NCBI GenBank assembly: GCA_032358255.1
Contig: JAULBX010021076.1
Span: forward strand, 1 to 64,000
Source of the DNA: Heterotrichella gracilis
Taxonomy: Eukaryota > Sar > Xanthophyceae > Tribonematales > Xanthonemataceae
Length of the DNA: 64,000 bases
Direction: 5' to 3'
Shown piece after piece: positions 987-59,500 of the stretch (position 1 is its first letter; every line of letters begins with the position of its first letter). The position numbers were made by a program, and so were the translations under genes. Under the pieces are notes generated by a model, which did not search any database, was not told where the DNA came from, and worked only from the letters and a program-made list of their open reading frames with translations.

Positions 987-3380
987 GCTGGTACAATCAT
1001 CCCACCAGGAGCCGAGCCCTCTCGCCCGGTACTTCATGCTAGGTAAGACATGCATGTGTGTGCATGGGCTGCATCAGTTTCAATGCGTGGCGGATGGATA
1101 TTGAATAATATTTATATCTAACGAAATATTGTTGACTAAAGTATGTACATGACTATGTGTACCATTACGTATATTTTTCATTCAAGTTCTTTTTAATTGC
1201 TCACAGTGTTCCTTTTGTGTGTGCCGTGCAGTCATCGCGCTGTTTGGTGCGCTGCCTATGGCGCTGTTTGTGCGCAGCCCCAACCTCCTGGCCCTAGTGT
1301 CGCAAGGCAGCGTGGGCTTCATCCTGGTGTTCACGGTCATGGTGGCCATGCTGGCGGTGGTGCCACAAACATTGCCAGGTGCTGCGCAGGTTGGGGTAGG
1401 GCTCAGGGGTTTGGAACTCAAAGCTGAAGACCTGCTGGTTGGTTTTATTGTGCGGTGATGCTGATGAAAGCACGATGAGCAGACTAAACCATAATCAACC
1501 CACAAAAGCGTGTTGTCGGCTGGCACTGTGGGCACACCACGCATGTGCTTGCACTGTGGGTCCAGGGGTTTTGCGACCTTTTGACCCGAAACCCTAAACA
1601 ACTAATGCTGCCATGCAGGCCCGGTGGTGTTTTGGCGGTGGGAGGGCATTCTGGTAGCCTTCCCGGTCATGGTGTATGGCTTCACTGCGCACCAATTCCT
1701 GTTCCAGATCTTTGCCTCGCTGCGGATGCCCACCATCAGCCGAATGAACAGCGTGGTGCAGCAGGTGTGACCATGAACAGTTTACAGATAGGGATCCTAG
1801 TGCTGGCACTCTGTATTTTCCCAAGGATCATGGTCTCGATTCCTGACGAATTTGGAACTTTTATAAACGCTACTGCAAATGCTGACTCGATGAGAGGTAT
1901 ATCTATGGTTTTCGGAATTTTCGGACTGTTCGGACGTCGTTCGTGCTGTTCGGACGTCGTTTTGAGTCATTTTGTACGTCGAATTTGGGATGATTTTGAC
2001 TGGTTTAGTTGCTGCCCTGATTTTCTGACGAAAATGTGGCCATTTTCCGCGTCCTAGACACATTTTCTGAAACATCGTACAAACCAATGACGACGCGCTG
2101 ATTCCGAACATGTGTTCAAAAAGTGTGTCTGACCACTGGAAGGGGTCCAAATCGCATGGTCCGTGCCTCCCCCAAGTTTGGCCCAGAGTGCCACCATTAG
2201 ATAGGATGCAGTTCAAGAAAATGACTTTATATGTGACAAAGGAATTTTTTATGGTTACCACCCTGTGCCCCTACCATCAATGTGGGCCATGCCACACAGG
2301 AGGAGGTGGTTTGGTGAGCCATGGCGCATGCCTGCCCTGTGTGACTACTGGTGGCCTGAAGATCGTTTTGGCTGTTGCTGTGATTGGTAACTGATCATGT
2401 GCCTGTGGCATGCAGAGCGTGTTCCTCAGTGCATGCATCTACATCAGCATTGGTACTTGTGGATACGTGGCGTTTAAGTCAAGGTGAGCTGTGGACACGG
2501 TTACTTTACTGCATCGTCATATCACTTCCACTTGAGCCTGGCTGCAGTAATGTCTGCATAACCTCATTGTTTTGCTGTCGTTTTATACTGTTGTTTTGTA
2601 GTACAATTTGCCTCATTTTGGCTGTCTGCTGGAATGCATGTAGCCAGTCATCCAAGTATTTCCCCTTGTAGGACCAATGGCGACCTGCTCCGGAACTTGG
2701 GAGGACCCAACACCTCTGGTCTGCGCCTGGCATTTGAAAGCCTGCTCAAGTTTGGGTATGGCTTCAGCGTGCTGGGCACAGTGCCCCTGGTGGTGCTCCC
2801 TCTGCACACCACCTTCCTGCCGCTGCTGGCCCCCCTGGGAGAGGAGGTGGTGGTGCAGCAGCCGGGGCAGATGCCGGTGCTGACTGCCACGCAGGAGCAG
2901 GTCATTACAGTGGGCGCAATAGGTAAGGAGCTGTGCGAAGAAGTTACAGGATTAAGGATGAAAATAAAATAGTTACTAGGAGCAGGTCATCACAGTGGGC
3001 GCAATAGGTGAGCCAGACTGCGTGAGGATCTACAGGATTGAGGATTTGAAGACAAACAATTATATATAAATGTATCCAACAATGGATGATTTTACAAGCC
3101 TAATGAGCTGGGTGGCTCCCTCATGATTATTCTCACTTTCCTTGAAATAAAAATACTGTAATTTCACAATAGCAAACAACGATTGCACACCACATATGCA
3201 ATATCTGTGCAGGCATCGCCCTGGCTGCTGCGCTGCTCATCCCCAACACTGAGTTCATCCTGGCACTGACTGGTGCCACGGCCTCAGTGCTGATCGCGTA
3301 TGTGTTCCCTGCCGCCATCTTCCTGGCAATCACCGGGCGCCAACGGGGCATGCTGGGCTATGATGTGGACATGATCAAAG
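987..3380 (+). CDS. Amino-acid/auxin permease family (AAAP, SLC38/AVT-like) transporter, partial
   Basis: Six exons join in one frame: 987–1042, 1232–1378, 1619–1764, 2416–2483, 2672–2922 and 3213–3380, all with GT–AG introns and matching phases. The product is a string of hydrophobic helices, with segments such as VIALFGALPMALF, FPVMVYGFTAHQFLFQIF (followed by an MPTISRMN-type loop) and IPNTEFILALTGATASVLIAY. This is the usual pattern of helices 4–10 of AAAP amino-acid/H+ (or Na+) transporters of the vacuole or plasma membrane. Two parts are missing. The first three or so helices must lie upstream or be lost. The final helix is not visible after 3380: reading on gives a short tail and a stop at 3416–3418, and the next recognisable coding sequence is a histone deacetylase fragment. 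The gene is either continued through exons I cannot see or broken at a rearrangement. The intron at 2923–3212 holds an echo of the exon end. Confidence 0.72.
2979..3010 (+). repeat. Exon-edge echo (transporter exon 2672–2922, donor side)
   Basis: A near copy of the last ~30 bases of the exon plus its donor lies about 85 bp downstream, ending GCAATAG|GTGAGC against GCAATAG|GTAAGG at the real edge. Similarity continues into the intron (TACAGGATTRAGGAT occurs after both). Confidence 0.8.
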
Positions 3381-3809
3381 GTGGGCTGCTGAAACAGTTG
3401 TCAAAAATTAAAGCTTGAAGAGTGCTTACATTGTCAGTGCATTGAGTGTCAATATCTATGACGCAGATGGTCTGCCTACTTCATGGCCATGGGCGGAGCA
3501 CATTGCCCAATCGCACTTCATCATGGCAGACCACCTGGTGGGTGGCGCATGGTGGCGGCTGGCGAGCACACTAGTAAACAGTCGGGGTGTGCAGTTGGCT
3601 TGCATCGTATTTTGCATCACACTGCATGCTGTTATGTGCTGGTGGCCACGTAGCATTGCCATGTGCTCATACACACACTGGGAGTCCACAAGGTTGAACA
3701 TTTCACACCGCCACATCCCTGGCAATGGTGGAAGACATGCATTTCTTGCACCATTCTGTATCCCACCATCCATTTCTTGCACCATTTCTCCCATAAATTT
3801 CCTGCACAG

Positions 3810-4431
3810 GTGAGTGCCGGGTACGACGCCCACTGGCGGGACCACTGGCAGGCCTCCAATTCCGCACCGCCACCTACCACCGGCTGGCAACCCTAATCAA
3901 GGAGCTGGCTAACAGGCTTTGCGGTGGGTACAAACCCTAAACCCTAAACTTCAAATCATAAACCCTACCCTGGTGGGTGCTGTAGCAGGGGTGCTGTGCC
4001 AGTTTCGCCACTGATAAGTGACAGCTGCTGCTTGTAAAAGCCACTTGCTTGTGGGCTTTCTCCGTGGACTGGATGGGGCAAGTTGGTGCATGTGGTGGGC
4101 ATGGGGCTCCAGGGTTTAGGGTTTAGGGTATGACCCACACTGACGCACCCACACCTATGCCCCCACCCCTGCAGGCGGCAGGGTTGTGTTCCTGCTTGAG
4201 GGTTGTTTATTTCATTTATGAATTCATTATTTCCCTGCAGGCGGCAGGGTTGTGTTCCTGCTTGAGGGCGGGTACGACCTCAAGGCCCTGGGGGAGAGCG
4301 TGGGAAACACGTTCCTGGGGCTGCTGGGGGAGCCAGGGGTGGACGCGTTCAATCCCGACCTGCTGCGGGATGAGCCGGCTGACAAGGTGGCCCAGGTGAT
4401 CAGGGAAGTGCGCGCCATACACAGCCTATAG
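3810..4431 (+). pseudogene. 3' fragment of a histone deacetylase gene with a one-base frameshift
   Basis: Two exons match the C-terminal end of an HDAC/acetoin-utilisation family domain. Exon 3810–3923 reads VSAGYDAHWRD, then LAGLQFRTATYHRLATLIKE in the next frame. Exon 4241–4431 starts at phase G|GC and reads GGRVVFLLEGGYDLKALGES up to a TAG stop at 4429–4431. VSAGYDAH and LEGGYD are family signatures near the Zn/substrate pocket. A single C is missing in GGGACCACTGG at about 3840 (the family expects Asp-Pro-Leu), so the frame breaks. No upstream HDAC exons, and so no catalytic His-His or Asp residues, are visible. I read this as a decayed gene remnant; a sequencing error would repair the frame but not supply the missing 5' part. 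TTTAGGG-type motifs fill the intron. Confidence 0.75.
4171..4203 (+). repeat. Exon-edge echo (HDAC last exon, acceptor side)
   Basis: GCAGGCGGCAGGGTTGTGTT and the next 13 bases repeat the acceptor and first ~30 bases of the HDAC exon, 67 bp upstream of the real acceptor at 4240. Confidence 0.9.
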
Positions 4432-4551
4432 CCTGCAGTATAACCTATGTACACTCGATACAGCATATGCTGTATAGTGCTGGGAAGAAGCAGACTTTTG
4501 CCGGGACATGGTGTCAGCCAATGCATGCGGCACGGTGTCAGCCATCAGTTA

Positions 4552-4680
4552 CTGGGGGCGTCAGAGCGGCGGCGACGCGTTTTTGGGGTTGCTGGGGTGG
4601 CAGGGGTGGATGCGTCTGACCCCAACCTGCTGCATGTTGAGCCTGGGGACAAGGTGGTGCGTGTGGTCAGGGAGGCAACA
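4552..4680 (+). pseudogene. Second, decayed copy of the HDAC last exon
   Basis: The DNA aligns with most of the exon at 4241–4431. In shifting frames it keeps GLLG, GVDA, DPNLL and EPGDKVVRVVRE where the first copy has GLLG, GVDA, NPDLL and EPADKVAQVIRE. Several indels break the frame and there is no clear splice acceptor. It is a tandem partial duplicate that decayed after copying. Confidence 0.65.
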
Positions 4681-10600: not shown

Positions 10601-13600
10601 TGCGCCTCGGCCACACCCATCTCCACAGGCCCGCCGCAGTGCTTGATGGAGCTCACAGGCGAGGCCCCGGTGCCCCCGTCGTGGCCCGAGATCTGGATGA
10701 TGTCTGCATTTGCCTTGGCCACCCCGCTGGCCACTGTCCCGATGCCTGCCTGGGCAACTAGCTTGACGGACACCTTGGCGTTCTTGTTGACCTGGGTTGT
10801 GAGGGGGGTGGGTGAGGGGTTACATAGGGGTATAAAGAGCGTTTACCATATGCATGTGGCAGCCGGGAAGGAGTGTTGTAGAGAGTGATAGTGGGTGGGT
10901 TGTGGTGGGTACAGTGATCATGCGGTAGCAGACAATTGTTTCGATGCCTGCTGGCGGTAGAGGCTTGACAGACATCCCTGCAGACGCCTCTGTGCGCATG
11001 CGTTCAACCTGGGCAGGTTGCAGTGAACACGATACACGAACAAATCGCGCTATGCCCCGCAATGTGTTTGCCCCCCAGCATCCATCTTTCACCTGATGGA
11101 GGTCATAGATGAGCTGCGCCAGGTCCTCGATTGAGTAGATGTCGTGGTGGGGGGGCGGGGAGATGAGGGGCACGCCGGGCTTGGAGCGGCGCAGGTCGGC
11201 GATGTAGGGGCTCACCTTCTTGCCGGGCAGCTGGCCACCCTCACCTGGAGGAAACACACAGGAAATAAGGGGATATAAAAAAATGTCTTTTTATTTATCT
11301 TGCTGGGGAGCTGGCCGCCCTCACCTGGAAGAAACACAGGGGATAAGGGGATATTAAAATGGCCGCCCTCGCCTGGAAACGTGAAGAACAGATGCGAGTG
11401 CAATTATAGTAACAACAAAACACACAAAAGAAACACGTCTACTGAGCTGGGGTGCCTTCAAACTTCCCATCCTCAATACAATTTGTAGTGCAATCTCTAT
11501 TCCCACATCCCCCTCCCACACCACAGCCACCACCGATAGCCCCACGCCCGTCCAGGATGCCGTGCAGACGCTCCCTCCCCACCCCCACCCCCCATCAAAC
11601 CATACCCTCCCCACCACCCACCTGGCTTCGCCCCCTGCGCGATCTTGATCTCCAGCTGATCGGCGTTCACCAGGAACACGGGCGTGACCCCAAACCTGCC
11701 CGAGGCCACCTGCTTGATGCGCGAGGTGGCAATGTCCCCGTTCTGCAGGCCCTTGAGGTGGGGCAGGCGGGGGGACACGCCCCCAGCCACGTCATCGAGG
11801 ATCTCCCAGCGCACGGGGTCCTCGCCTGAGAGGGGGTGGGGGGGGCGTTCAGTTCTTATCAAAACATGGTTCAGCTTCTATCTTGACACCTAATGATGTA
11901 ATAAATCCATTTTGTAGGATCGCACAGCTTCATAATGGCAGCTTATTTCCCCTTGTTTTGTTGAGCATGCGTGTTCCCATCTCACTGCGGTGACACGTCA
12001 ACCGCATCTCAAGTTCATGGCAAGTGTGCACCTTTTCATCAAAATCCCCCAATCTAAAAGGGGTATCTCCCCTCACGCACCTCCCTCTCCCGAGTTTGAC
12101 TTCCCGCCAATGCGGTTCATTGCAATGGCGATGGTCTCGTGCGTCTCCCTGCTGATGGCGCCCAGGGACATGCCACCGGTGCAGAAGCGCTTCATCACCT
12201 CGGCGGGGGACTCAACCTGGGGTTGAAGGTTTAGGGTTTAGCGTCGGGTGTAGGGTTAAGGTTTCTGGCCAAGGAAGTCTCTGCGGAAGCCAAGCTGATT
12301 GTGTTGAAGTCCGGAGGAAATCTGTTGTTATTTTGGCCCAGGACTCAAGTTCCTGACCTTGATCCCGGTGCAGATGCAATGCAAAACCAATGGGGCAGGG
12401 ACCCGAGGCATCAATACAACAGAGGCAGGAAGGCCAGAAACAGACGAGGGGCACAAATTTTATATACTAGACCCTAACCTCAACACCTACCTCCTCGATG
12501 GGGATTGGCTCCCTGTCCGATGCCAGCGTGAGGCAGTCGCGCAGCACCGATGCAGGTGAGTTCTCAAAGTGCGCCAGGTAGGCGTCATAGGCGGCCTGAG
12601 GGGAGGCGCCCTTGTTGCCCAAGCCAATGGCCTGCAGGGGTAGGGGCGTTAGGAGATTGTTCATATACCGGTTAAGGGATTTGCGGGTTGACAAGATTGG
12701 AAAAGTGCGCCTCATGATTTAGACCAATGGCCTGAACCGCAGCAAACGAATCGTTGTTTCCCTCTTCACATACAAATGCAGAGTCCAGAGCAGAAAGTTG
12801 CTGCGTTCTTAGCTGTGCAAGCCCAGATTCTGACATGCATCTTGGCCTTACTTGCTATGATAACAGAAAATATGGTGCACAACCCCCACCCACCTTGTGC
12901 AGCAGCTTGGACATCTGCTGGTTGTTCGCGTGGTACTCCCCCTTGGGCTTGGACTGGATGAAGCCATAGTCCTCCAGCTTGCTCAGCGCCTTGCTGGGGA
13001 AGCCCTTGGCCCAGAAGGACTCCTGCTCGCGCTGGACATCGGCCAGTGACATGCCCCCGATGCGGCTCACACTGCCCTTGAAGGCCGCGTTGACCACGTC
13101 GGGGCCCAGGCCGTAGATCTCAAAGATCTGCGCACAATGGGACATAACAAAAACAGTTTATAAAAGCAATATAATTGTGTTGAATTTCAATAATTTTGTA
13201 CTCGTCCTTCCCCGTCCAATTTTGTGCTGGATGTCTGTTAGTGACAATCCCCCAATTTTGGCTCACACCCCCTTGACAGTCACGTCAACCACATCAGAGT
13301 TGAGGCCATAGATCTCAAACAAAAAAATGGTACCATTAAATTTTGTGAATGCTAGTCATTACCTGCGCGCCATGGTAGCAGTTCAGCAGCGAGATGCCCA
13401 TCTTTGACAGGATCTTGAGGATGCCCTTCTCCAGCGCCTTCTTGTAGTTCTTCTGGGCATCCTCCATGGACAGATCAGGCACCTTGCCTGCAGGGGGGAG
13501 AGAGGTTTGTGAGGGGGTGGAAAAAGTGCTGATTCATTTGTGCTGCTGGAAATTCAGTGTACCTGTGACCTGGCGCCCCCACCAACAAGTCCTGCACGTG

Positions 13601-16600
13601 GATTCTCCTCACGTACTATCTTATATTAGAAACATTTCCAGTAATAATGCAATTATGACAGGAAAACGTCAAGTGTACATGCTACGCTAACTCGTCTTCA
13701 ACAGATGTACCTCCTCTGCCCAAATTCCATCCCCACCTTGCTTGATGAGCGCCTCCGTCCTTGGGCTGGTGCGCCACTGCCTGACCCTAACCCCAATCTA
13801 AATCCCAAACCCTAATCAAAACCCTAATCAAAACCCTTCCTCGCCCCTCACCTTGCTTGATGAGCGCCTCCGTCCTTGGGCTGGTGCGCCACTGCCTGCA
13901 CGTCTCCAGGGCCAGGTAGGGGCACACAGCGTGCGCGCCATAGCCCACCAGCACACACACGTGGTGGGTGGAGAAGGCCTGGGCGGTCTCGGCCACAAGG
14001 GAGGTCTCGGTGCGCAGCCCAGTCCTGCAGATGGGAGTGGTTTATATTACATGTGTGTGACTATTAGAAGTCATAAGTGAATGCGAATGGTTGTGAGGAA
14101 AAGAGGTTCGACCCTGGCAATACCCTAGGGTAACCTTGGCTAGTTTTGCACGCTGGGCTTGTCCCCTCGCACCTGATGAGGTGGTGGTGCACGGCACCCA
14201 TGGCCAGCAGCGCCGGCAGTGGGGGGCGGGAGGGGTCCATGGGCCCATCCAGCTTGTCGGAAAGCACTGCAATCTCACATCCCGCGCGCACAGCTGCCTC
14301 CACATCGGAGCAAAGCTGCTTCAGGGCGGCTTCAAGGGCGCCGTCCTGTGAGGGTTTGGGGTTTAGGGTTTAGGGGGTTTGAACCGTTGCGCGCAGGAGT
14401 AGGCGAGACAGGTGGCAGTGTCTGTGCGTGTTGCGGCGCTTGGCACAACGATTTTGTTCCGCAGCCAAGGGTTTATGTACCCCTAAGAACTTCCTTGTGA
14501 AGACGCTGCATGCAAGCTCTGAGGCAGCAGCCAGCACCTCGAGCTTATTGACTCCACACATGCAACACACAACCGCCACCGTAGCATCCACCACCACCCC
14601 CACGCCATCCAAGCAACCCCCCATTCAACCCCCGCCATTGCTGCTTGCGTACCGTGCCAGCGGTGTAGCTGAGTGGGAAGGTCTGCACACTCAGCCCTGA
14701 GTCGCTCTTGATGGCACTCAGCTCAGACTCCAGCAGCACTGGCGACTTCAGCAGGATCTGCGGGGATGGCAGATGGAGGTGGTCAGAGTCGAAAAAAAAG
14801 GCCATTGATGGCATGCCTGTGTCCATGCAGGTAGGTCGCGTGGGGAATATGGATGGCGTAACCTTAGTGCACTCTGCAACAGCCAGAAAGTGCACTACAC
14901 ATGCGGCTGCCACTAACCCCCTGTGTGTACTGCTGAAGATGTTGCTTTTGCTTCTGAACCCCTTCCGACCCCCCCTGCAAATGCGCCCTGCCCTGCCCCC
15001 CCCCCTGCCCCCCTCACCTGCTTGTACGCCCCCTCCCCTGGCTGCAGCAGGTTGCCCCTCTTGCCCAGCCTGGACTCCAGGCTCATCACCAGGCCCTCAC
15101 GCAAGGGGTCGATGGGCGGGTTGGTCACCTACACAAAGAGGACGGGGTTGATCGCTTAAGGCTTGCTTCCTAGGGTTTATACTCCAGGCTCAAAACCAGG
15201 CCCTCACGCAGGGGGTCGATGGGCGGGTTGGTCACCTGGGGAGGAAGGAATACGGGTAGCTAATTGGGTGGTGCTCAGTTTACAGCCAGAGTCGTGACCA
15301 GGTGCAAACACATCCATTTCCATGCTTGCAACCCTGACCCATACATCCTCCACCCTGCTACTCAAAACGTTGTTTTGCTGTAACGCCTGCTTGCATGCTG
15401 TTGCACACCTAGCCCCCCCCACACTCACCACGCACACTCCAACCCCATTCCACCCACCTGCGCAAAGCGCTGCTTGAAGTAGTCTGGCAGCATGTGCGCC
15501 TTGTCAGACAGCACAGGCAGGGGAGAGTCATCCCCCATGCAGTAGGTGGCCTCGTTGCCGGTCTGTGCCATGGTCTCAACCACCATAGTGGTGTCCTCGA
15601 GGCCCATGCCTGGGGGGTGGGGGGGGTGGTGGTCAGGAGAGTGTGTGTGTGGATTGTATGCAACCCCTTACGCATATGAGACAGACTAGATGTCCAGTAA
15701 GCAGAGGTATATGCCTGCATACTAGGTATGCATGCATGTGCAAATCAGCAGCGGGTTTTCCATCATTATTCTGTCCTCCAACATGGTTCAGCTGCATCCA
15801 TCAAACTCCTGTGAATGGGGTGCCATCTCCCACACCCCCCCACCCCTTTCCACACCGCCCCGCCCGCACGCACCCACAGCTGCCTGCATGCGGATGGCGT
15901 CCGCAGCCGCCATGCTGCACTCCCCCTGGAACTTGCTGGCGTTCATGTCAGACAGGAGCGAGCAGCTGGCCTTGTTCCACTCCTTGTAGGGCTGTCTGGC
16001 CGCCACCTCCTTTGCAATCTGGATGTTATCCTTGAAGGTGCCGGAGTCCATATCCACCATCACCATCTGCCCGGGGCCCAGGCGGCCCTTGGCAACCACG
16101 TTCTCTGCATTGCTCAGCACGTCGCCCAGCACACCCACCTGCGCAAAGGGGTGGGTATTGCTTAGTTGAATGTGCACACGCCTTACATGAAGTTTTAGTA
16201 GAACTGCAACCAGCTCGTGCGGCGCGTTCTGATATACCTTTGTTGTCACTAATCTTACACCACCAAAAGGAGAGCAGTGTGGGGTGCGGCAACCCCCAAA
16301 ATCATCGCCAACCGCCACAGCTAAACACTTTCGATGACTGATCATCTCCCCCACAGCACCTGCCCAAATCAACTAGCCCTGGATCCCTAGTATGGCCTGA
16401 TTCCCCGCCCTCACCTCTGACGCCACATACACGTAGTCGTCGGCTGTCTGCCAGAAGCGCGCGGGGCGCAGCCCGTTGCGGTCCAGGCGGGCGCCGATGT
16501 GGTGGCCGTTGCTGAACACAAGCAGGGCAGGGCCGTCCCAGCCCTCCTGCATGCCCTCGTAGTACTCGTAGAAGTCGGTCACCTGGGGATTTGAAGCAGG

Positions 16601-19600
16601 TATACATATTCAGGACTCTGATAACATTTTTTACAACTAACAGAGCATTTTTCCCCCGTTTTTGAAGCACTTCAAATATATGGCCAATACTACCGTAGGA
16701 CACATGATCGGTGCTGCGCTGCCCAGAGGAGTGGATGCAGACGCGATGATTGCTTTAGCACTTCCTTGGCCATCCCACCCCACAGCCATGGCCCCACCTG
16801 TGGGTACTTCTGCTCCAGCTCGGGGTGGTTCCTGAAGACCTCAACACCACCCCAGGCTCAATCTAACCACAAATTACCCCTCCCCCCCCTTCCCCCCACC
16901 GCCAGCCCACACAGCTTGGGCAACCATTCATCTCATTCAACCCCCTGACCCCAACAACCCCCACCACCCACCTGTGGGTACTTCTGCACCAGCTCGGGGT
17001 GATTCCTGAAGGCCTCGGGCACCAGCAGCATGAGCGCCTCCTCCGGCTCAAACCCGGTGCGAATGAGCAGCTCAGCAAGGTGGTCCAGGTTGGCTGAATC
17101 GGATTCGGCTGCGTTGCACAGGGGGAGGAAGGAGGCCTCCCTGCCCTCCCACACGGGGTGGCTCAGGCCCGTCTGGCGGGAGGCCACCCAGTTGAGGTTG
17201 CCCTGCAGGGTGTTGATCTCACCTGCAAGAGAGGGTATGTTTATTGAGTGATTAGATAATATCAGATTACGCAACCCGAATTTTGACATTGCCTGGAGGG
17301 AGGGTGTTGATCTCACCTGCAGGGGGCAAAACGAGTTCTGGTTATTTTCTTGATTATTGTACGTATCTAATGTTCTTTACTTGATCCACTGTTGGCTTTT
17401 AAATGCACAGCGGGTTTTCTTGTAGCCTGGTGAGGTGTGAAGCTGACAACAGTAGGCATTAATTAATTGGTTACGAGCACCGTTGTCATTGGTGCGCGGA
17501 TGAGTGACTTGGTGGGCGTGTGTTGTGTGCTTACCATTGTGCCCCAGCATGCGAAAGGGCTGCGCCAGCAGGCAAAGGATTTAGGGTTTGGAAAGCCACC
17601 GTTCAGGCTTGAGCGCTCACCGTTGTGCCCCAGCGTGCGAAAGGGCTGCGCCAGCGGCCACTTTGGCACGGTGTTGGTTGAGAAGCGGCGATGGTATACC
17701 ACAAAGGAGGTGGTGAACAGCGGGTTGGACAGGTCCTTGTAGAACTGGCCAACCACCACGGACCGGAGCATGCCCTGCACAATGTAAGGGTTTAGGGTTT
17801 TAGGTAAAGGGTTGGACAGGTCCTTGTAGAACCGGGCAACAACCACGGACCGAGCATGCCCTGCGCGAAACAACCATGCGAAATTAAATCAGAGGAAGTC
17901 TGCGTAGCATACAACCCCAGGGGCGCTGGAAACTGATGTAACCGCAAGCGCAAGGCCAAGATGGGGGGCTGGGCACTGATAACCTTCCACCATACCACAC
18001 CCCACCCCGCCACACCCAAACAGCGTGCAAATGTTTTCCCATTCCCGTCCCCACCCCTAACCCCACCAGCCCTATCCCAGACCCACCTTGTACACGATGG
18101 TCCTGTTAGACAGCGTGCATGTGTAGAAGTCGGACTCCGCCTCGCCCATGTCCCTGGCCTTGCGCTGCTCAACCAGCTTGCGCACAATGAACAGCTTGCG
18201 CTCAAGCACGTCCTCATCGGACCCTGCGTTAGGGTTTAATAACACATTAATTTGCCATAGCCGTGGCAAACTGGTGTTGCACCACCCTGTTTGTCCCCTC
18301 CAGAGCCCTAGCCAACCCATACACCGCAGCCGTTCCCAGCGCACCAGTGATGTCCTCAGGAAGCGTGGCTGGGTGTCCATGGCAAAGCGGCCCACCTTGA
18401 TTGGAACATGTGCATGGCGTATCGAACTGAGCCCTCCCCACCGCCCCGGAGCCAAACCCCCAATCCTAGACCTAAACCTTCAAACTATTCCTTACCAGCA
18501 GTGTCCTCGATGACAATCTGCCAAAAGCGCGGCTGCGTGTCCTTGGCAAAGCGCCCCACCACCTCTGGTGCTATGGGCACCTTGCGCCAGCCCACCACCT
18601 TGAACCCCTCAGCCTGCGCCACCTCCTCGTAGATGGCCTTGGACTGGGCCTCAAGGGCGTCGTCGTTGGGCAAAAACAGCATGCCCACACTGCAAGTGGG
18701 TGCAATACAAGGTCTGTGGACGGTATACCATGGTGTATATGAATCCGTGCTGTTAGTTCAGATGGTGTGAGCAGAACAGCACAGCTTGACGACACTTTGG
18801 CAGGGCTGACTGATCAACAGTTGTGCCAAAACCAGCGCCACGAAGCGCCACGAAGCGCCACCAAGACCACAGCGCACCATCGTACAGTGCGCCGTGTCAT
18901 GCACGCTGGTGTACCATAGAGACTTCTGGCTTAGCCCTGGGGACCCCAAACCCGTCCACAGGCATATTACTATAAGGGATCTGTGTCACAGTTGCACTGG
19001 TGTATCGCACGCACCCTGCCGACTTCTCGTTCAGGCCTGGGAACTCGGCCTTGAAGAGTCCCCAGGGAATCTGGGTCATGATACCCGCGCCGTCACCCGA
19101 GTCGTCGTCTGCAGAGCAGGCACCCCTGTGCTCCATGCAGCCCAGGGCAGTGAGTGCCTGCACACGCCACAGTTGCAACCCGCTCAATATCCTGCCACCC
19201 ACCCCCCATATGCACACGCCGCAGTTGCAACCCACTCAATATCCCACCTCCCCAGGTGAAACCACTACCCAGCCAAGCCATTGAGCAGCACAACTTAACA
19301 GCAATAACAACCCATTCAGTGGTCCGCCCACTCGGTGTTCCACCCTCCTACACGCCACAGTTGCAACCCGCTCAGTACCCCGCCTATCACCTTACTGAAC
19401 GCTCGGGACTAGCATACTACTCAGTACCAGCATACTTCGGGCCTCGATGCGATGCGGCCAAGCGCCAGCACAGTAACCCCGCTTAGTCCCCCACCCTCAC
19501 GTCCATATGTGCGGGGGTACATGGCTACTATGCGGGTTTGTACCGAGCGATTACTGCGGTTGAGTTGTGCTGCTTATTCCATGAGCTTGGTGGCTGCTTT

Positions 19601-21815: not shown

Positions 21816-24800
21816 TCAATCGTCATCCGGCTGCACCAGCAGCAGCGCCTGCGGCACCAGCCCCAGATCCACCAGGCTCTGCCCCCGCGCCTCCCCATCA
21901 AACACCTTGCGGGGATAGCTGCTGGCCAGGCTGTACTTGAGGCAGGCCAGAGAGGGTAGGCTGTCCACATAGTCGTACACCAGGGAGAGGGGGTCGGTGG
22001 CAAGGAAGCGGCGCTGCGCATTGGCCCCGTCGGGGAGACGCACCCGCACCTGGGCGCTGCCTTGCGTGCCTGGGGGACGGGGGAGGGAGGTGGAAGGTAT
22101 AGCATGTGCGGGGGTGTTGAGAGTGTGGCACATCAGCAAAGCGCACATGCGCATGGGCACAAAGTACACCAATGCAATGCCAGGGCATAATCCATGTTCG
22201 GATGGGACCATGGCCACCACCCACTCCAGCAATGATGTGGGTGTATACACCACGGCAAATGTATATTTTTATCAGTACTTATCTCTTCTAAACAACATTT
22301 TCCTTTATTTATTTTGCATTAAGAGCATGTGACTGCTGAATAAAATCTCGTGAAAATCTATTTGTAAGGTGTCACACCTGCGGGAGGCTCTGGGCGCAGC
22401 GAGGCCTGCTTCTGAGCCCGGCGGCGGTCAATGGAGGCCTGAAACTCGTTCTTGGCATGCTCAATGGCATCCAGCTCAGCCCTGCAGGGGACAGGCCAGG
22501 CAAGGCGGTCAGCTGGCGCCAACAAACCCTAAACCCTACACACAGATTCCTAAAGCGCATGGCACCAGCAAGGGATGGCGCTCAGCTTCAACGCTGTCAC
22601 AGCACGCCCGTGCATACCAAGGGTCAGCATTGTGCACTTAGAATGTCCAAGAGATGTTATTTCTTGAAGGTCACGTACTGTGCCTTTGCCGCCTCGTCCT
22701 GCGCCTGTTTTTGCTCCGCCTCCCGCCGCCGCTGCTCCTCGGCACGCACGCGCTCGCGCTCCCGATCCGCCTCAAGGGACCGCTGGTACTCGGCATCCTG
22801 CTCCTCGCGCAGCTGGCGGTCCACGTCCTGCGGGGTTTGGGTTTTGAGGTGAAAGGAAAGGTGGTGTGGGTGTGGGTGTGGGTGTGGGTGTGGGTGTGGG
22901 TGTGGGTGGGTGCTCAGCATTCTGCTCCTCACACAGTTGGCGGTCAATATCTTGCGGGTGGATTGGGTTGTGTGCGGCGGTGGCGTACATGTGCATCGCT
23001 CGGGCTGTTGCCCCCCTGCACATTCCTTTAACCTGGCAATGCATGTACATGACCCTACACCATAGATCCTACATCACGCCCTCCCTTGCCGCTCCAGCTA
23101 GTGGAGCAACAATACATGCTCCTCCACCGCTCTGACCCCCAAACCCTAACCCCCAACTCTAAACCCCAAACACACCCGCTCTTGCCGCTCCAGCTGCTCC
23201 GCCAGCAGCAGCGGCGCGTGGTTCTCCACCGCCCCCTGCAGCGCGGCCAGCAGCTGGGAGGGCATGCATGTGCCCTCCACACTTGTGATGAGGCGAGTGC
23301 GGCTGCCAGAGAAGGCAAGCAGGGCGCAGTAGGGGTAGGCTGTGGCATGGATGGCGCTGCTCAGCTGCATTTGGAACAAAACAAAGTCAGTCTAATACGT
23401 GGTACGTAGTTGCTTGATTATTCCAAGACTAAGTTGCTGCAGTGACGATCCATAAACCAGTGTGTTCCATGCTGGATAATTTACCATGCATGCAGCAGGA
23501 GGTGGTGCTAGATGGTGCCTACCCTGAAAGCGTCTGTGTGGCGCGTGTCCCCTCCCCAGCTGTCAAATGTGCTGTTGATGTACTCCACCACGTCTGGGGA
23601 GGTGAGGGTATTCCGGCAGAAGGCAGCGCTGTCCTGCTGAGCACAGGGGGTTCAGCGCACAGGTCAGTCATTCTTTATTACTAGCAAAATGCAGTTTAGG
23701 AATGCAGCCAAACTAGCAGTGGGCCTTACACACGCAGCACCGAGCATGTCAACTCTAGCACTGCATACATTTATACTTGGTCTTGCATAACCTGGCTTTG
23801 CTGGGTCACGCCCAGATAGGTGCATGTCCCTTCAGCTCCAAACACCAATTGTCACCGCCTTACTTTGCCTGGCATGCGACATGGCAGCAGAAACCCTGGG
23901 TTGCAAGCCGGGGTATTGCTTCAGGCAGAAGAGTACACCAAGCGTGGGGAGGAGGCCTTGCATACCTCGTGGTTGGCGGCATGTAGGTACACAAACAGGA
24001 ACTTGTAGTGCGAGTAGGCGCGCGTGCATGCCTCCTGCCACCCGCACGCCGCAAAGGCAGGTGCTGTGTCGCCATACTGGGTTGTGAACCTTGCGATGAA
24101 CTGCTCCGCTGACTGGACGGGGTCAAGCTCCTCGTTACCCGCTGCAATCGCTCGGAGGGCTCCTATGCATGAGAGGACCAGGTATAAGCTGCTGGGGACA
24201 AGCCTGATGTGGGGATCAGGGATTTGGCATTTCTGAACCGAGCGTTTTGGGAGGATTATAGGGTTAGGAATACTACGAGTGCCAGCAAAGCTCAGAGAGC
24301 AGTGCAAGGCTTTGGGACCAGCTCTGCATGTTGCAGCATGTGGAACTGGAAAGCGCCAGGGTGGCTTATGCCAACGGAGAATAACCCACAAGTCTCCCTG
24401 TACAACAAACCCAGGGACAGCTCTCACCTCTGAGCAGGTTCTGCAGTGACGCAGGCAGCACCGCCGAGCCCACCATCTTGGCGAGGGACAGCGTGATGCG
24501 CAGGCTGCCGGTCACGACCTTCACTGCTGTTCTCAGCACCACCACTGGGAGGCCAAGCAGGGAGTGCAACAGTCCTGCCTGCCTTCGCCCAGTGGGTGCT
24601 CTGGGCCTGGGTGGGTAGTGCGCAACCGGCTCTGGTGGAGCCCTGGGCCTGGGTGGGGCTTGCTGTATCCCACTGAAATTCTCTGCACACGAAGTTTGGG
24701 TCCATATTCAGAGCTGTGGAGCTGTTCAAACCCTTTTGGAGACACACTTGAAAGAGCTGTGGTGATGGTGGGGTGCTCTACTTACCAAAGTACATTGCCA

Positions 24801-38085: not shown

Positions 38086-43082
<4,997 letters not shown>

Positions 43083-47100: not shown

Positions 47101-48606
47101 CCCCATTTTGTAAGAGAATCTAGACAGTCACCAAAAGTCCTGTCCGCATGGTGCCTTAAACCTAGTCCAATCACACCTCCTGGCACCCTATCAATGGTGC
47201 CACGAACCTTGCACTACCTTTCACCCTAAACCCTACTGCCAGTGGTGCTGCATACCTGATCAGTGCTTTTACCCTAAACTCTACTGCCAATGGTCCTGCG
47301 TACCTAGTCAATCCTTTCCCCTTTGAAACCCTAAACCCTGGCGCCATTGATGCCCATACCCGGTCAGGCGGTCCGCCTTTGTCCTCCATCCTAAACCCTA
47401 TACCCTAAACCCTGCTGCCAGTGGTGACCCATACCTGGTCAGGCAGTCCCCACTCTCATCTCCTTAACGTGCCTCCACCCTAAACTCTAATCCCTAAACC
47501 CTGAACCCTGCTGCCATTGATGCCCCGTACCTGATCAGGCGGTCCCCATCCTCGTCTGCCTTGCGCGTCTCCACCACATAGGTGCGCATGTCATACACAC
47601 TCTTCTTGTCCTCAGTGATGGCCAGCGGCTCAGGAATACCTGCCGCAGGGTGCACAGCAGAGGATCAGCCGTGTCATGCCCAACACACCATGCGGGTCAC
47701 ATGCGGCAGGCAAGGCGTGGTACCAACATGATTGTGGGGTTTCGTGTGGGTGCAAGTGTGGGGTGGTGGTGGACTGCTCAAGGTTATGGTGGGTGCCCGC
47801 ACCACTTGTGTCTGCTGGATACCAACAAGGTTTCACTGAATGGCTATTTAGGGTTTAGGGTCAATTTACCAACAATCCCTAAACGAAATTAATTTCAAAT
47901 ATATTCTGTGCCATCAAAAAAAGCCCCAGTGTTTTTCGGTAAAGTATGCCACCCCTGCACGTGACAGTGCGCATAGATGCGTTCCCGACTCACATGTGAA
48001 GGGCTCAAAGGCTGCTGTCTCTCCCACCCACACGCCACCGGTGGTGCCACAGAAGGAGCTCCACAGGGGGACGGCAGCACGCTCCTCCTGGGCCAGCGTG
48101 GCACGCACATCAATCTGCGGGCACAATTTACAATCGTTTACAAAATATCTCACTGGGTCACCTCAGGAGACGTGTCACAGGCCATTGCAGTGGAGCTTGG
48201 CTATCGCCAACGTGGGCTTGCAGTGTGAGTTGGGCATGGGCGCAGGCGCCGGTGCGCACCTGCAGCGGCGGTGTCGCGGCTTGCACGCCGGTGTCCTTTG
48301 ATGACTTGCCGCCCTTTTTAGCACACAGGACGACCATGCGCCGGTGGAGCCGGCTGCCAGTGGGGTGGCGTTGGCCCCTGCCTGCACACAGCCAGCCACA
48401 GGTTTGCTGCTACTGGAGCTTACATTTGGGTTGGGGCGCGCACGACAAAGCCATAGTATGCTTGTTTACGTTTTGACATCGACACTAGAGGCTGTCTATG
48501 GTTCTGAGCCACCACAGGCCAGGTTTCGTGTGCACTTACTGAGAATGTGTGTGTGCCGGCCAGTGGTGTAGTGTCCACCTGCTCCGCCCAAGCTGGTGGA
48601 ATACAT
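44161..48606 (-). CDS. Conserved plastid-targeted protein of unknown function (possibly DUF3598-like)
   Basis: Ten exons on the - strand are inferred: 48606–48579, 48381–48260, 48114–47994, 47639–47531, 46977–46820, about 46460–46044, 45786–45654, 45508–45265, 44775–44641 and 44271–44161, for about 525 residues. The N-terminus (MYSTSLGGAGRGQRHPTGSR, then LHRRMVVLCAKKGGK) looks like a chloroplast transit peptide. The mature part has motifs I associate with a plastid protein family of plants and algae: FCGTTGGVWVGETAAFEPFT, GLVVFDGGAYSNGELSIG, VEQCLTWGGEQRLR, LEGDWKVFDVIAQP, WLPGDVMLEIK and GMLIGMQRDYDSTGLL. Its biochemical role is unknown to me, and the DUF3598 label is only a guess from memory. 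A long Glu/Asp-rich insertion lies in the sixth exon. The join between the exons ending at 46820 and starting near 46460 does not fit in phase with any AG I can see, so a small exon may be missing there. Confidence 0.75.
46759..46783 (+). repeat. (AAAAG)5 microsatellite
   Basis: Five AAAAG units lie within an intron of the plastid-protein gene. Confidence 0.95.
47160..47530 (-). repeat. Tandem echo array of a splice-donor edge with telomere-type linkers
   Basis: The real donor edge of exon 47531–47639 (TACCTGATCAGGCGGTCCCC at 47528) recurs as CATACCTGGTCAGGCAGTCC (47431), CATACCCGGTCAGGCGGTCC (47354), CGTACCTAGTCAATCC (47299), CATACCTGATCAGTGC (47251) and a weak copy near 47160. The linkers are CCCTAAACCCTGCTG and CCAKTGRTG. 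Spacing is roughly 50–100 bp. It is the most regular echo array in the window. Confidence 0.93.
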
Positions 48607-55375: not shown

Positions 55376-56512
55376 GCTAAACACTTGCAATTGCAACGGG
55401 CCACAAATTGCACTTCATCAGTGGGGTATGAACCACAGTGGGGATGATCCTGATACTATCTGGTATATCTATTAGGCCTGCACCAAATATAGGCCCAGAT
55501 TGACCCTTTAATGATTGTGTTCCTCTCTAGTGCCAGTTTTGGCATTGGCATGCATGCCCTAGACGAGGGTTTTTCATGCAGCTGCAGCCGCACCTTCCAG
55601 GCGCCAGTTGGCACTGCCCAGATGGTGCCGATGGGCCCATGTGATGAAGCGCGCGCACGATCGGAGAGCAGCACCCAACCCACCCATCGTCCGCTGCCGG
55701 GTATCGGGCGCTAAAGGGTGTTGTTCGGCAGGGCTGCTGTCACAAAGAGATACAGTAGAGCTCGTACGTGAGTGTATGCATGCCGTTTGCCCGTTGCCTA
55801 AGTTTTTGGGTGTCATGCAAGTGCCAGGTCCCATTTCCATGCGTTGTTGGAGTACGTATAATCTACTGCCAGCTTGCACTTGTACCTTGTACGGAGAACG
55901 CATATTGCCATGTCATTGACAACGGGTCATGCAGTTCTTGGCTATTTAGCATTTTATACCTATTGAACCAGCCACTGGAGCCAAGGGTGATCAGCGAGGG
56001 AGTAGTAGGGACGTAAACCCGCTTTCCTTAGCTGCCAATGTGCAAGGTGCTGACAGAACCTCCTAAACCTCCTCAGCAAGCAGGAGTGGCAGCTTGTGTG
56101 TGATACGAGGCAAAGCCTTTGATGTGGGCTCTAAGAGGCAATCCGCCTTTGTAGTGCCAAATACAGAGGGGTACCCAGCACCGTTCACATGGCACTACCA
56201 CCGGTGCCCATGGAGTGATTCCAGCTTGCCAGGTGTTGGGAACTGGTCAGCATGCAACGAAGGGCTCTTGACTCCATGCTTGTACATGAATTATTGGTGC
56301 TGCTTGGAACACCTAAGCTGAATTCAGGTACTGGGGCAGCACAGCCTTCAGGAGACACCCAACTCCTGGACTTGGCAATGCACGCAGCAGTTGCGTCACA
56401 CCACCAGGCCCTGTAGCACACTCAGTGCAAAGCAATTTCCAGTACCAGTGGCAACATCCTTGGTGAGGCAGCCACCGCTCTTCAAAACCCTACCAGGCTG
56501 AGCCTATCAGCC

Positions 56513-59500
56513 ATGCAGCTACCCAGGGCTTTTGCCAGGTCAGCAGAAGCCAGCCATGACACCAGGGCAGGTGTTCTCCACCCCTCCTTGCCCTGCATAA
56601 ACACCGCACCCAAACAACCCATTGGCTCAGATTCCGCCGGTGCTCACCAGCATGCTGTGGATGTGGATGTGCTCCCGGGGAAGCTGTCATCCCTGATGCG
56701 GGGATCCCAAAAAGGACCCAAGTCTAGGACCAGCCTCATTTTCCACCTGCTGGTTGTGGTGATGCTGGCGACAGCCATTCTGGCTACCTTGGCTTGGTCA
56801 GTGGGGAAACCCTCCTGGGGTAATTCCAGCTATGGAGAGCGCCAACAGCAGCGCTTGCGAGACACAGACACTGTGTTCCTGCAAGGTGGTCAAGAAGTAT
56901 TGATGCCACAGGCGGAACAGCCTGCGGGTGGGACGCCAGAGGATGTGCGGGAGCAATGGCAGCAATTGCTTGCAGAGGATGCTGCATTGTCACAGACATG
57001 CGCCCCCTCCTCCTTCCCCGAGCCCCAGTTCTTTGACGATCACTGCGGGAAGCACCTGGAGGTGCCAAAAGTGGCCCTGCTGTTCCTTGCAAGGTAGGCG
57101 AAACAGTGGACCCTGTTCAGGTTTGAGAATTTAGGTTGCTCTCCTGTTCCTTGCAAGGTAGACAAAACAGTGGATACTGTGTAGGGCTTAGGGTTTGGGT
57201 TTTGGGTTGGGGTCTACCTTGCCCTCCTGTTCCTTACAATGTAAGCAAAACAGTGGCCATTCCTGTCTCTCATCTTCCTAACAAATGCAGCTGTTCAAGG
57301 ACAAGCTGTGTAGGTCATTATATCGTTTATGGCTTGTAATTATTTGTTTACGTCCTTGCAGGGGTCCCATGCACCTGGAGAGGATTTGGCGGTCTTGGTT
57401 CCAATCAGCCGCGGCGTATCTACCAGTCAGGGAGGTGGTCAATGTGGGCTGCTCGCGCGGTCCCGGTTTCTTTTTCTGGACGAGGGACACCCTGTGCAAT
57501 GCCAGCAGCACCGAGGGGCCCAATCCTGTGCTCATGAACCAGCACCTGTTCTCGGTGTATATCCACTACCAGCCGGATTTTGAGGGCTACTGCAACCACA
57601 CGCTGTTCTTTGGGAGGGGGTCAGGTGCGTGCACAATGCACGGTCCCCCTTGCCAGCTGGTCGATTATGCTGCTCCTGGGCGGCCTGGTGTGCAGCAGTG
57701 TGTGTGATGCGCCATGTTGTAGATGCCTTGTGCGCTCTGCTGAAGTGCAGTGACTTTGCGCATGGGGTGTGAACCACTCGCAAGGGTTCCCAAGATTGTC
57801 ATCAGCCGCCAATGCTAGCAACGTTCACACGTGCACGCGCAAGCAACAATGTGCACACACAATCCCTAAGTCTACATGTGCGGTGCAATGAATTGCCGTG
57901 CTTCAAGCCAGTGAGACCATTCCACGCATTTGCATGTTTTATTTACACAAAACCTCTCCATTGTACCCCCTGCAGCTGACCGCATCCAGACCTACTGGGG
58001 CCACCACTCCACCACCGATGTGGCAAGAAAAATGCTCAGCCAGGCGCTGGAGGACCCCAGGAACCAGAAGTTTGTGCTCCTGTCCGAGTCCGACATCCCG
58101 CTTTACTCCCCCCTGGTGGTGTACCAGCAGCTCATTCATGAACCCTTGAGCAGGGTGAACGCCTGCAAGTAGGTCCATCATGGATTATACACCAATGATT
58201 GGGCGTGGGCCGCATGCATCAATGCTAGAGATAGGGTTGCACAAAGGTTTTGTGCAATGGCCTGCTTCATGCATCATGATCGCTTCTTCCCCTGGGGACC
58301 TGCTGGGATCTGTACCTATATGTATTCATATTGCTCTTTTACTGCAGGCTCCCTGGCTGGTACCGTGGCGACTACCGGTGGAGCCCCAACATGGCCTCAG
58401 GCAACTTCACCTTTGACCACTGGCGCAAGCACTGGCAGTGGTTTGGGCTCACAAGGGAGCATGCGCAGGTGGGGCAGGAAAGGGATAGCATGGAAGTACC
58501 CTTTTTTGCCTGAGGCAATTGCTGCCACTGGTGCCAGATTAGCAGCCACTCGTGCAGACTGGGCTGCTGTGGCAACGCCATCAATGGTAGTTTTCAGAGG
58601 TTCTGTATGACCATTGCAGCCTTGAACATCCACCATGTGCGAATTTTACTCGACTGCCCTCCTTTGGAGACATAGTGGGAAGGAGTCCCTCAGAGAAAAT
58701 GGTAAAACCTCAGTACAATGCGCAATATGTTAAACAAGTACATCCCATCTGTTTTCCACGACAATTAAACCTCCTGTGCACCCTCAGCATTGCAACCACA
58801 CTTGCATGCACATGACCCACAAGTGCGCATGCGCTCAGGTGGTGGTCGACGATGACTTCATCGTCAAGATATTCGAGGAGAACTGCACCAACGGCAGGAC
58901 CCCCGACGGGCGCTGGCGCGACTGCTTCTCCGATGAGCACTACATCTCCTCCCTGCTGGCATACAAGGGGAGGGACAGCGAGACGGACTGCAGAGGGGAG
59001 GTCACCAGTGCGGATTGGGGTGCGGGTGGGCCCCACCCCAAGACGTACGAGGAGGGGGAGGTGACTGCGGAGTATGTGTCTTTCCTGAGGCGGCCATACC
59101 TGCAGTGCGACTACAGGGCAGCCATCGAGGCTGCTGAACAGGTGAGGGTGCAAGGATCAAGGGTGGCGCAGTTTCAAAGGCAGCATCGTGCAAATGATGC
59201 TGTACGTATTGTTCAGGAATAAGGTGGCATGGCACTACAAGTTGCTCATATGGAATGCCATGGAGGGAATTGGATGAGGCGCATATTTATACGGTATTGA
59301 ACAAAGTATTGTGACCTATGAAAAGGTTTAAAATATATATATCCAAACAAACAGACAGACAGGCATTCCCAGCCGTCATCGGCTCATGGCCTTATGTGCC
59401 CCTGAAGGTGACACATGTGGGACACTAGGTCCTCAATGTCATGACTAGTTGAGTGGGTAAGCAGGTCTGGCAAGCTAGTGATGCGGAGAATATTCTCGGA

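What the first reader, a model, noticed from the sequence alone, without database searches (positions are those of the whole stretch)
2979..57262. Exon-edge echoes: introns repeatedly carry partial copies of the neighbouring exon boundary
At about 20 exon edges in eight genes, the intron next to an exon holds one to five copies of that exon's last or first 20–60 bases, with the splice site and some intron sequence. Copies at donor edges lie downstream and copies at acceptor edges upstream, 60–200 bp away. Preservation runs from perfect (13736–13783, 35821–35865) to barely readable (13224–13320), so the process is repeated and ongoing. This differs from whole-exon duplication, introner insertion and simple slippage. 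It would make introns grow outward from exon boundaries and leave decoy splice sites. I know of no described system with this signature.
Basis: seen in the sequence. Interest (0 to 1): 0.9.

Follow-up and report, generated by a model that had tools for sequence, protein, structure and literature searches.

The report
Exon-edge copies with telomere repeat spacers
In this unidentified green-alga-like genome, introns carry partial copies of the neighbouring exon's edge, often separated from it by telomere-like repeats, which suggests that DNA breaks repaired beside exons have been lengthening its introns.

Summary
The window has 21 exon edges in 20 of 104 predicted introns (eight gene models) with copies in the adjacent intron. 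Five dinucleotide shuffles gave none. In 324 kb of this genome there are 154 direct local repeat pairs and 4 inverted. They are tied to exon edges: at >=85% identity, 44 of 50 introns have the best pair at an edge, 16.8 expected. Exon bases within 20 bp of a junction are copied into the adjacent intron 9.3% of the time, bases 100 or more bp away about 0.7% or less. The unit is typically about 45 bp of exon plus up to 13 bp of intron. About half of the spacers (22 of 48) have none. Introns with copies are about 130 bp longer. Best explanation: staggered breaks beside exon junctions, fill-in with telomere-like filler, end joining. The parts are known; the exon-edge targeting with telomeric spacer was not found in the searches made. 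No empty site was available, so mechanism is inferred.

The parts
2978..3045 (+). Donor echo of 2893-2959 (30 bp exon + 37 bp intron, 83%)
4167..4202 (+). Acceptor echo of 4233-4268 (8 bp intron + 28 bp exon, 100%)
11298..11359 (-). Acceptor echo of 11218-11281 (86%), GOGAT gene
13226..13319 (-). Acceptor echo of 13031-13124 (73%, oldest-looking), GOGAT gene; read as exon it is an insertion relative to 1llw
13731..13783 (-). Donor echo of 13846-13898 (47 bp exon + 6 bp intron, 98%), GOGAT gene
13784..13845 (-). Spacer between that pair: degenerate TTTAGGG-type repeats, G-strand on the coding strand; found only here in the genome
15181..15237 (-). Acceptor echo of 15074-15130 (2 bp intron + 55 bp exon, 95%) with its own polypyrimidine tract, GOGAT gene; insertion relative to 1llw
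16793..16842 (-). Donor echo of 16967-17016 (45 + 5 bp, 94%), GOGAT gene; insertion relative to 1llw
17523..17569 (-). Donor echo of 17609-17655 (35 + 12 bp, 89%); spacer has AAACCCTAAA
17809..17864 (-). Acceptor echo of 17722-17778 (4 bp intron + 53 bp exon, 93%); spacer 17779-17808 has CTAAAACCCTAAACCC on the coding strand
18361..18396 (-). Copy of 18525-18560, which lies 29 bp inside the donor edge (89%)
22909..22972 (-). Acceptor echo of 22785-22846 (78%)
26398..26459 (+). Donor echo of 26200-26261 (49 + 13 bp, 94%), cysteine desulfurase gene; read as exon it is an insertion relative to 5usr
27348..27433 (+). Donor echo of 27231-27317 (70 + 17 bp, 86%), cysteine desulfurase gene, insertion relative to 5usr; spacer 27318-27347 is TTTAGGG-like
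28797..28893 (+). Acceptor echo of 28894-28988 (66 bp intron + 29 bp exon, 81%), plain tandem form
30709..30850 (-). Two further copies of donor edge 30880-30966, spaced 89-116 bp, with CCCTAAA in the unit
34188..34368 (+). Two acceptor echoes (34188-34250, 34324-34368) of exon start 34488-34578
35568..35683 (+). Two donor echoes (35568-35605, 35645-35683) of 35472-35519
35821..35864 (+). Acceptor echo of 35940-35983 (3 bp intron + 41 bp exon, 100%); each copy has its own, unrelated polypyrimidine tract; spacer 35865-35939 found only here
36229..36324 (+). Donor echo of 36121-36221 (44 + 57 bp, 85%), nearly plain tandem form
47223..47374 (-). Copies of donor edge 47402-47545 (71%), with TTTAGGG-type repeats in and between
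57135..57256 (+). Donor echoes of 57071-57109

Best explanation
The echoes are scars of DNA-break repair beside exon junctions. One strand is cut a few bases into the intron and the other about 30-60 bp inside the exon. The exon-bearing end is extended by telomerase, or otherwise receives telomere-like filler, with the G-strand running away from the exon. The overhang is filled in and the ends are joined. The result is exon edge, spacer, second copy of the exon edge, rest of the intron. Splicing keeps using the edge attached to the full exon, so spacer and copy fall into the intron, which lengthens by mostly 65-210 bp; the copy then drifts nearly neutrally. Shown: edge bias, unit shape, direct orientation, telomere-enriched and mostly oriented spacers, near-neutral copies, longer introns. 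Inferred: the staggered break, the role of telomerase, the end joining. Unknown: why breaks would fall at exon junctions.
For: 154 direct against 4 inverted pairs. Best pair at an edge in 44 of 50 introns at >=85% identity, 16.8 expected, and in 13 of 15 at >=93%, 3.1 expected; with edge pairs given a doubled detection window the simulated p is 2e-5 or less at every cut-off tried. Telomeric 7-mers in spacers (>=80% identity, 15 bp or longer): donors 41.4 per kb G-strand and 7.8 C-strand, acceptors 48.8 C and 6.3 G; ends of 278 echo-free introns 2.0-6.6. Of 48 spacers 18 follow the orientation, 4 break it, 4 are mixed, 22 have none; p = 0.004 for 18:4. Beyond donor echoes telomeric 7-mers are rare (1.2 G and 2.3 C per kb, n = 22). 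(CCCTAAA)n stands at the first bases of seven contigs. A telomerase RNA-binding domain matches in two pieces on C626. Echo acceptors with a short intron part (n = 14) have real polypyrimidine tracts (PWM 1.43; parents 2.10; other intronic AGs -2.13), yet intron flanks of such pairs are not related beyond chance (p = 0.18), as expected if the echo sits at the original acceptor. Echo introns are longer, 389 against 260.5.
Against: 22 of 48 spacers have no intact telomeric 7-mer. The telomeric spacer 13784-13845 is degenerate although the copies around it are 98% identical, so it was not freshly made perfect repeat. Orientation near acceptors could reflect selection for pyrimidines. No empty site was available. 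Across 20 stretches, echo frequency and telomere density in echo-free introns correlate only weakly (rho 0.43, p = 0.055). Beyond acceptor echoes telomeric 7-mers do occur (11.1 G and 19.4 C per kb, n = 18). In short-intron-part pairs the exon-side flanks show a weak excess similarity (p = 0.005) that filler would not predict. 124 of 253 mismatches are synonymous, somewhat more than the roughly 42% that I estimate for a neutral copy facing a fully constrained exon.
Confidence: 0.5

Rival explanations
1. Telomeric repeats already sit at intron ends and stall replication. The polymerase switches template at splice-site-like motifs, copies 30-60 bp of exon edge and switches back, so that a copy is pasted into an intron whose spacer is native.
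For: Fits short intron parts, spacers found nowhere else and a degenerate telomeric spacer between near-identical copies. Telomeric 7-mers are frequent 10-40 nt from junctions in introns generally.
Against: Does not by itself explain why echo acceptors carry full polypyrimidine tracts (n = 14) or the strand preference at donors (10 G-only to 2 C-only spacers; 27 to 21 in echo-free introns).
Confidence: 0.17
2. Ordinary random small tandem duplications, with selection sparing those at exon edges because splicing skips them.
For: Plain tandem forms exist (28797, 30709, 36121, L015+L028 8848). Copies look nearly neutral.
Against: Intron-only duplications should then be commoner, but only 10 of 77 best pairs are intron-only, 34.4 edge pairs being expected where 67 were seen. 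Units are lopsided (median exon part 45, intron part 12 at >=85%). The telomeric spacer is not explained.
Confidence: 0.13
3. Old full tandem duplications of exon edge plus intron, whose intron halves have decayed while gene conversion keeps the exon halves alike.
For: Both acceptor copies have complete splice signals. Distances cluster at 64-124 and 160-209 bp. Weak exon-side flank similarity (p = 0.005).
Against: No intron-side similarity in short-intron-part pairs (p = 0.18) even where the exon part is identical, whereas in tandem forms with 24 bp or more of aligned intron that part is still 75-94% alike.
Confidence: 0.1
4. Introner-like mobile element with long target-site duplications.
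For: Copy-spacer-copy layout resembles an insertion with a duplicated target.
Against: Three spacers searched match nothing else in 68.5 Mb (that search skips very common words). Of 499 introns, with telomeric stretches masked, only 35 pairs of introns match each other, 17 in the same and 18 in opposite orientation.
Confidence: 0.04
5. Assembly artefact.
For: Raw reads were not available.
Against: Pairs range from 67 to 100% identity with different flanks, and 8 of 18 loci taken without regard to echoes have them.
Confidence: 0.02

Closest known systems
Tandem duplication at breaks with 3' overhangs by CST and Pol alpha-primase fill-in (PMC8355091; abstract and passages seen)
   Same: Direct duplication of a stretch set by the overhang (overhangs as small as 43 bp there), at breaks repaired by end joining; CST also acts at telomeres.
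   Different: No telomeric filler and no link to exon edges in the passages seen; shown in mammalian cells with Cas9 nicks.
Telomeric repeat insertion at double-strand breaks in mammals (PMC2246262; passages and section 7 seen)
   Same: Species telomere repeat inserted at breaks, at some loci with duplicated flanks (6 of 130 in rodents, 4 of 25 in primates).
   Different: Duplication is the minority outcome there; no exon-edge bias or intron role in the parts seen.
Telo-box spreading model in plants (PMC3022908; passages and section 5 seen)
   Same: Proposes telomerase adding telomere motifs to free 3' ends at transcription-linked breaks in genes.
   Different: Telo boxes favour 5' UTRs, and in Arabidopsis the first two introns; introns as a class are not above the genome average (150.7 against 155.2 and 72 against 81.1 per Mb). 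Here predicted introns have 1469 per Mb counting both strands (strand counting in the paper not checked), and the motif lies between duplicated exon edges.
Staggered-break growth of new introns in Daphnia (PMC4202315; passages seen)
   Same: Internal direct repeats (55 of 90 new introns) taken as scars of staggered breaks that lengthen introns.
   Different: [quoted passage not shown] here mostly 27-87 bp and beside the same edge.
Direct repeats near intron borders (PMC11782384; abstract seen)
   Same: Repeats near splice sites read as break-repair traces.
   Different: Compares 5' with 3' borders; repeats 4-30 bp, mean 11.4.

Membership tests
Staggered-break tandem duplication | Direct, local duplication | tested here: met
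   154 direct, 4 inverted
Staggered-break tandem duplication | Filler between the copies, unrelated to either flank | tested here: inconclusive
   Spacers of 20-157 bp in 24 short-intron-part pairs; intron-side flanks unrelated (p = 0.18) but a weak exon-side excess (p = 0.005)
Staggered-break tandem duplication | Allele or relative with the empty site | not testable with these tools
   The genome has no relatives here; the one test query matched only its own place and its echo
Staggered-break tandem duplication | Dependence on fill-in and end joining | not testable with these tools
   Needs experiment
Telomerase-linked interstitial telomeric insertion | Insert resembles the species' telomere repeat | tested here: inconclusive
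   (CCCTAAA)n at the first bases of seven contigs; spacers enriched, but 22 of 48 have no intact 7-mer
Telomerase-linked interstitial telomeric insertion | Telomerase encoded in the genome | tested here: met
   PF12009 over cut-off in two pieces on C626
[quoted passage not shown]
   18 for, 4 against, 4 mixed; splicing selection may contribute
Introner element | Dispersed family of similar introns | tested here: not met
   (three spacers and 499 sampled introns)
Intron gain by duplication of a splice-site-bearing segment | Copies span donor and acceptor of the same intron | tested here: not met
   Only 3 of 77 introns (class S)
Whole-exon tandem duplication | Complete exon copied | tested here: not met
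   Coverage falls from 9.3% at the edge to 0.7% at 100-120 bp in exons of 150 bp or more

The most novel reading that the evidence does not exclude
In this lineage exon-intron junctions are preferred sites of DNA breakage, and telomerase-assisted repair of these breaks is a standing engine of intron growth, stamping each event as exon edge, oriented telomere repeat, duplicated exon edge. Telomeric repeats survive there because the G-strand suits a donor context and the C-strand (CTAAACCC) can supply branch point and pyrimidine tract to the acceptor.
Probability: 0.35. Interest if true: 0.88.

Novelty: new variant of a known kind. Interest (0 to 1): 0.72.

Why it matters
How introns lengthen, and why some genomes fill with telomere-like motifs, are open questions. 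Here both appear together as one oriented scar at exon borders, in 20 of 104 introns of the window and 25 of 285 in loci taken without regard to it. That would make break placement relative to exons, telomerase action away from chromosome ends, and tolerance of decoy splice sites testable from sequence in related algae.

Tried and rejected
Random tandem duplication plus selection was rejected as sufficient: edge pairs exceed a null that slides each pair within its own intron, even with edge pairs weighted twofold or threefold for slower decay (largest simulated p 6e-4).

Introner or transposon: three spacers searched genome-wide were found only at their own places. A small dispersed element occurs in some introns; I did not test every spacer against it.

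Functional (coding) echoes: the gene finder reads some as mini-exons, but six of them in two genes are insertions relative to solved homologues, 129 of 253 mismatches are nonsynonymous, and distances between copies show no preference for multiples of three (16 of 56).

Fragile telomeric repeats already in place: not excluded, kept as a rival. Spacers of intron-only pairs have a telomeric 7-mer in 6 of 23, against 26 of 48 for edge pairs.

Rows dropped before counts: loci L003 and L014 (GC 0.354, 0.371) from the statistics on (and one search also leave out low-GC loci); L001, L002, L023-L025, L034, L035 not used. Pairs with fewer than 24 matched bases outside telomeric or simple repeats were dropped. 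The sliding test uses one best pair per intron; 'other', 'E' and intergenic or gene-end pairs (15, 12, 11 of 154) are outside it. Predicted mini-exons that looked like echoes of a larger exon were removed from the models before classing. At least one junction looks mis-modelled (L009 6119). Stretches fetched were partly chosen next to echo-rich loci or the window, so densities should be read; the edge test without the richest locus gives 30 of 35, 11.1 expected, at >=85%.

Led nowhere: species identity (the SSU rRNA search did not complete; 5S gave matches, of no use for naming); a viral-contig search with one GOGAT exon gave one 14-residue match; Rfam on the window, no match at gathering scores; literature searches on telomeric repeats and algal introns and partial exon copies listed no description of this pattern. 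Vaughn and Bennetzen 2014 was not held and is known to me only from a reference list and recall.


Full report
WHAT THE WINDOW IS. The window is part of contig C211 of a 68.5-Mb, 903-contig assembly. It carries intron-rich nuclear genes. A gene finder trained on the sequence itself gave donors like CAG|GTGNGNG and acceptors like TGCAG|G. Its models include a ferredoxin-type glutamate synthase (GOGAT, minus strand, about 7.6-20.5 kb; best solved relative 1llw), a mitochondrial-type cysteine desulfurase (NFS1-like, 25.4-29.3 kb; best relative 5usr) and a GDP-mannose-transporter-like gene. Other gene names used here (fumarase, UBX, SOUL) and the source organisms of 1llw and 5usr are recalled from the sequence or entry and come from no call. 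Splice signals and GOGAT type suggest a green alga (inference); the species is not identified. Two of the 20 first-fetched loci have a very different GC content, so the assembly may be mixed.

THE OBSERVATION. Self-comparison of the window gives 36 direct local pairs at E <= 0.01, and in another run 36 direct and 1 inverted. With a 40-bit cut-off and distances under 1 kb there are 35 direct and 0 inverted, and none in five dinucleotide shuffles. Twenty-one exon edges in 20 of 104 introns have a copy in the adjacent intron. In 324 kb (20 stretches, some joined) there are 154 direct and 4 inverted pairs after masking: 50 donor, 40 acceptor, 3 spanning both, 23 intron-only, 12 exon-exon, 15 other, 11 intergenic or at gene ends. 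In the 18 loci taken without regard to echoes 25 of 285 introns have an edge echo, in 8 of 18 loci. One region (L020 and its neighbours, C300) is a hot spot with 23 of 47 introns.

IT IS REALLY ABOUT EDGES. I slid each intron's best pair over every position in the same intron that leaves the coding sequence intact. Edge pairs were 67 of 77, 34.4 expected; at >=85% identity 44 of 50, 16.8 expected; at >=93%, 13 of 15, 3.1 expected. Copies wholly inside introns decay on both sides, so I also weighted edge pairs twofold and threefold. The excess stayed: at >=93% with weight 2, p = 2e-5; the weakest result was 6e-4 at >=90% with weight 3. In 276 exons of 150 bp or more, the share of exon bases copied into the adjacent intron falls with distance from that junction: 9.3, 8.2, 4.4, 2.1, 0.9, 0.7, 0.7, 0.3, 0.06 and 0% in successive 20-bp bins.

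THE UNIT. At >=88% identity the exon part has median 45 bp and the intron part 8 bp; 22 of 27 units have 13 bp or less of intron. A few stop short of the junction (5 of 42 at >=85%). Averaged identity falls quickly beyond the splice signal on the intron side and slowly on the exon side; a minority of pairs do extend tens of bases into the intron. Units of the 24 short-intron-part pairs at >=85% are 27-87 bp (one of 115) and their spacers 20-157 bp. Start-to-start distances of best pairs cluster at 64-124 and 160-209 bp. A plainer form is a tandem repeat with little or no spacer and a long intron part (28797, 30709, 36121).

COPIES LOOK NEARLY DEAD, EXONS ALIVE. Across 56 pairs at >=80%, mismatches fall 133, 63 and 57 on the third, second and first codon positions; 124 of 253 are synonymous where random change gives 26%. 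A neutral copy facing a fully constrained exon would give roughly 42% (own estimate), so the copies look near-neutral with a small unexplained excess. Distances between copies are not biased to multiples of three. Read as exons, echoes appear as insertions relative to 5usr at two places and to 1llw at four places in the printed part.

BOTH ACCEPTORS ARE WELL FORMED. In 14 acceptor pairs with 0-13 bp of intron, the 20 nt upstream of the echo site (-24 to -5) are 69% pyrimidine, like the parents (67%) and unlike other intronic AGs (47%); PWM scores are 1.43, 2.10 and -2.13. Intron-side flanks of short-intron-part pairs are not related beyond chance (p = 0.18), though exon-side flanks show a weak excess (p = 0.005). 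The simplest reading is that the echo sits at the original acceptor and that spacer plus second copy were added between it and the exon. Donors gave no comparable discrimination (G content, echo against other intronic GT, p = 0.05).

THE TELOMERE LINK. The telomere repeat is TTTAGGG: perfect (CCCTAAA)n stands at the first bases of seven contigs (C70, C140, C526, C609, C717, C770, C824). Telomere-type 7-mers occur at 10.8 per kb of intron, 0.8 in exons (0.85 expected by chance) and 3.4 between genes in the sample held, and crowd 10-40 nt from junctions. The plant telo box AAACCCTA stands at 1469 per Mb of intron, 128 of exon and 434 elsewhere, both strands, with a control word at 14-51 (the sample includes stretches chosen for echoes). 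Spacers are richer still: donor spacers 41.4 G-strand and 7.8 C-strand per kb (27 spacers, 14 with any), acceptor spacers 48.8 C and 6.3 G (21 spacers, 12 with any), against 2.0-6.6 at the ends of 278 echo-free introns; p = 5e-4 and 3e-6 for presence. Beyond donor echoes, on the far side, they are rare (1.2 and 2.3 per kb); beyond acceptor echoes moderate (11.1 and 19.4). Orientation: in 18 spacers the G-strand runs away from the intact exon, in 4 the reverse, in 4 both, and 22 have none. Spacers of intron-only pairs have a 7-mer in 6 of 23. Across stretches, echo frequency and telomere density of echo-free introns correlate weakly (rho 0.43, p = 0.055). A telomerase RNA-binding domain is encoded on C626.

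MECHANISM. A staggered break with one cut just outside the junction and the other about 45 bp inside the exon, extension of the exon-bearing 3' end by telomerase or telomere-like filler, fill-in and end joining predicts copy, G-strand spacer, copy at donors, and its mirror image at acceptors. It fits the direct orientation, spacers found nowhere else and longer introns (389 against 260.5, p = 3e-11). Shown: structure, bias, composition, orientation, near-neutrality. Inferred: the break, the enzymes, the joining. Why breaks should lie at junctions is open; donor and acceptor sides behave alike, so something that marks the exon as a block (chromatin, base composition) seems likelier than a transcription-strand effect, but I did not test this.

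AGAINST. 22 of 48 spacers have no intact telomeric 7-mer. The spacer at 13784-13845 is degenerate although its flanking copies are 98% identical, which fits copying of an older telomeric stretch, sloppy synthesis, or a spacer older than the copy, better than fresh perfect telomerase product. Selection for pyrimidines can explain part of the acceptor orientation. No empty site was seen. Junctions are predictions, checked against homologues only for the cysteine desulfurase and part of GOGAT.

KNOWN RELATIVES. Tandem duplication at breaks with 3' overhangs through CST and Pol alpha-primase (PMC8355091, abstract and passages), telomeric insertion at breaks with occasional flank duplication (PMC2246262, passages and one section), the telomerase model for telo-box spreading in plant genes (PMC3022908, passages and one section), staggered-break growth of introns in Daphnia (PMC4202315, passages) and direct repeats near intron borders (PMC11782384, abstract) each describe a part. 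None, in the parts seen, describes duplicated exon edges around oriented telomere repeats, and ten literature searches listed no such report; the library lacks most subscription journals. I therefore call it a new variant of a known kind.

Noticed in passing
50071-50114 and 50128-50171: In-frame duplication (84%, period 57 bp) inside one exon; the predicted protein looks like a SOUL-type heme-binding protein (name recalled, no call).
   Followed up: no
62573-62668: Perfect three-copy 32-bp tandem repeat in an intron of a fumarase-like gene (name recalled), unrelated to an exon.
   Followed up: no
4288-4406 and 4552-4673: Two predicted neighbouring exons of the first gene model are 74% alike.
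   Followed up: no
L020, L027, L031 (C300:20001-50000): Hot region: 23 of 47 introns have edge echoes and intron telomeric 7-mers reach 28.5 per kb.
   Followed up: partly
L003 (C1:40001-50000) and L014 (C100:40001-50000): GC content 0.35-0.37 against 0.50-0.58 in the other first-fetched loci: perhaps another organism or compartment in the assembly.
   Followed up: no
introns of L006 (536), L020+L027+L031 (12796), L021+L032 (10706) and others: A short element of about 60-100 bp recurs in several introns in both orientations.
   Followed up: no
346 introns of 120 nt or more in the 324-kb sample: Telomere motifs crowd 10-40 nt from both splice sites: both strands near donors, mainly the C-strand near acceptors; 154 of these introns have at least one 7-mer.
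   Followed up: partly
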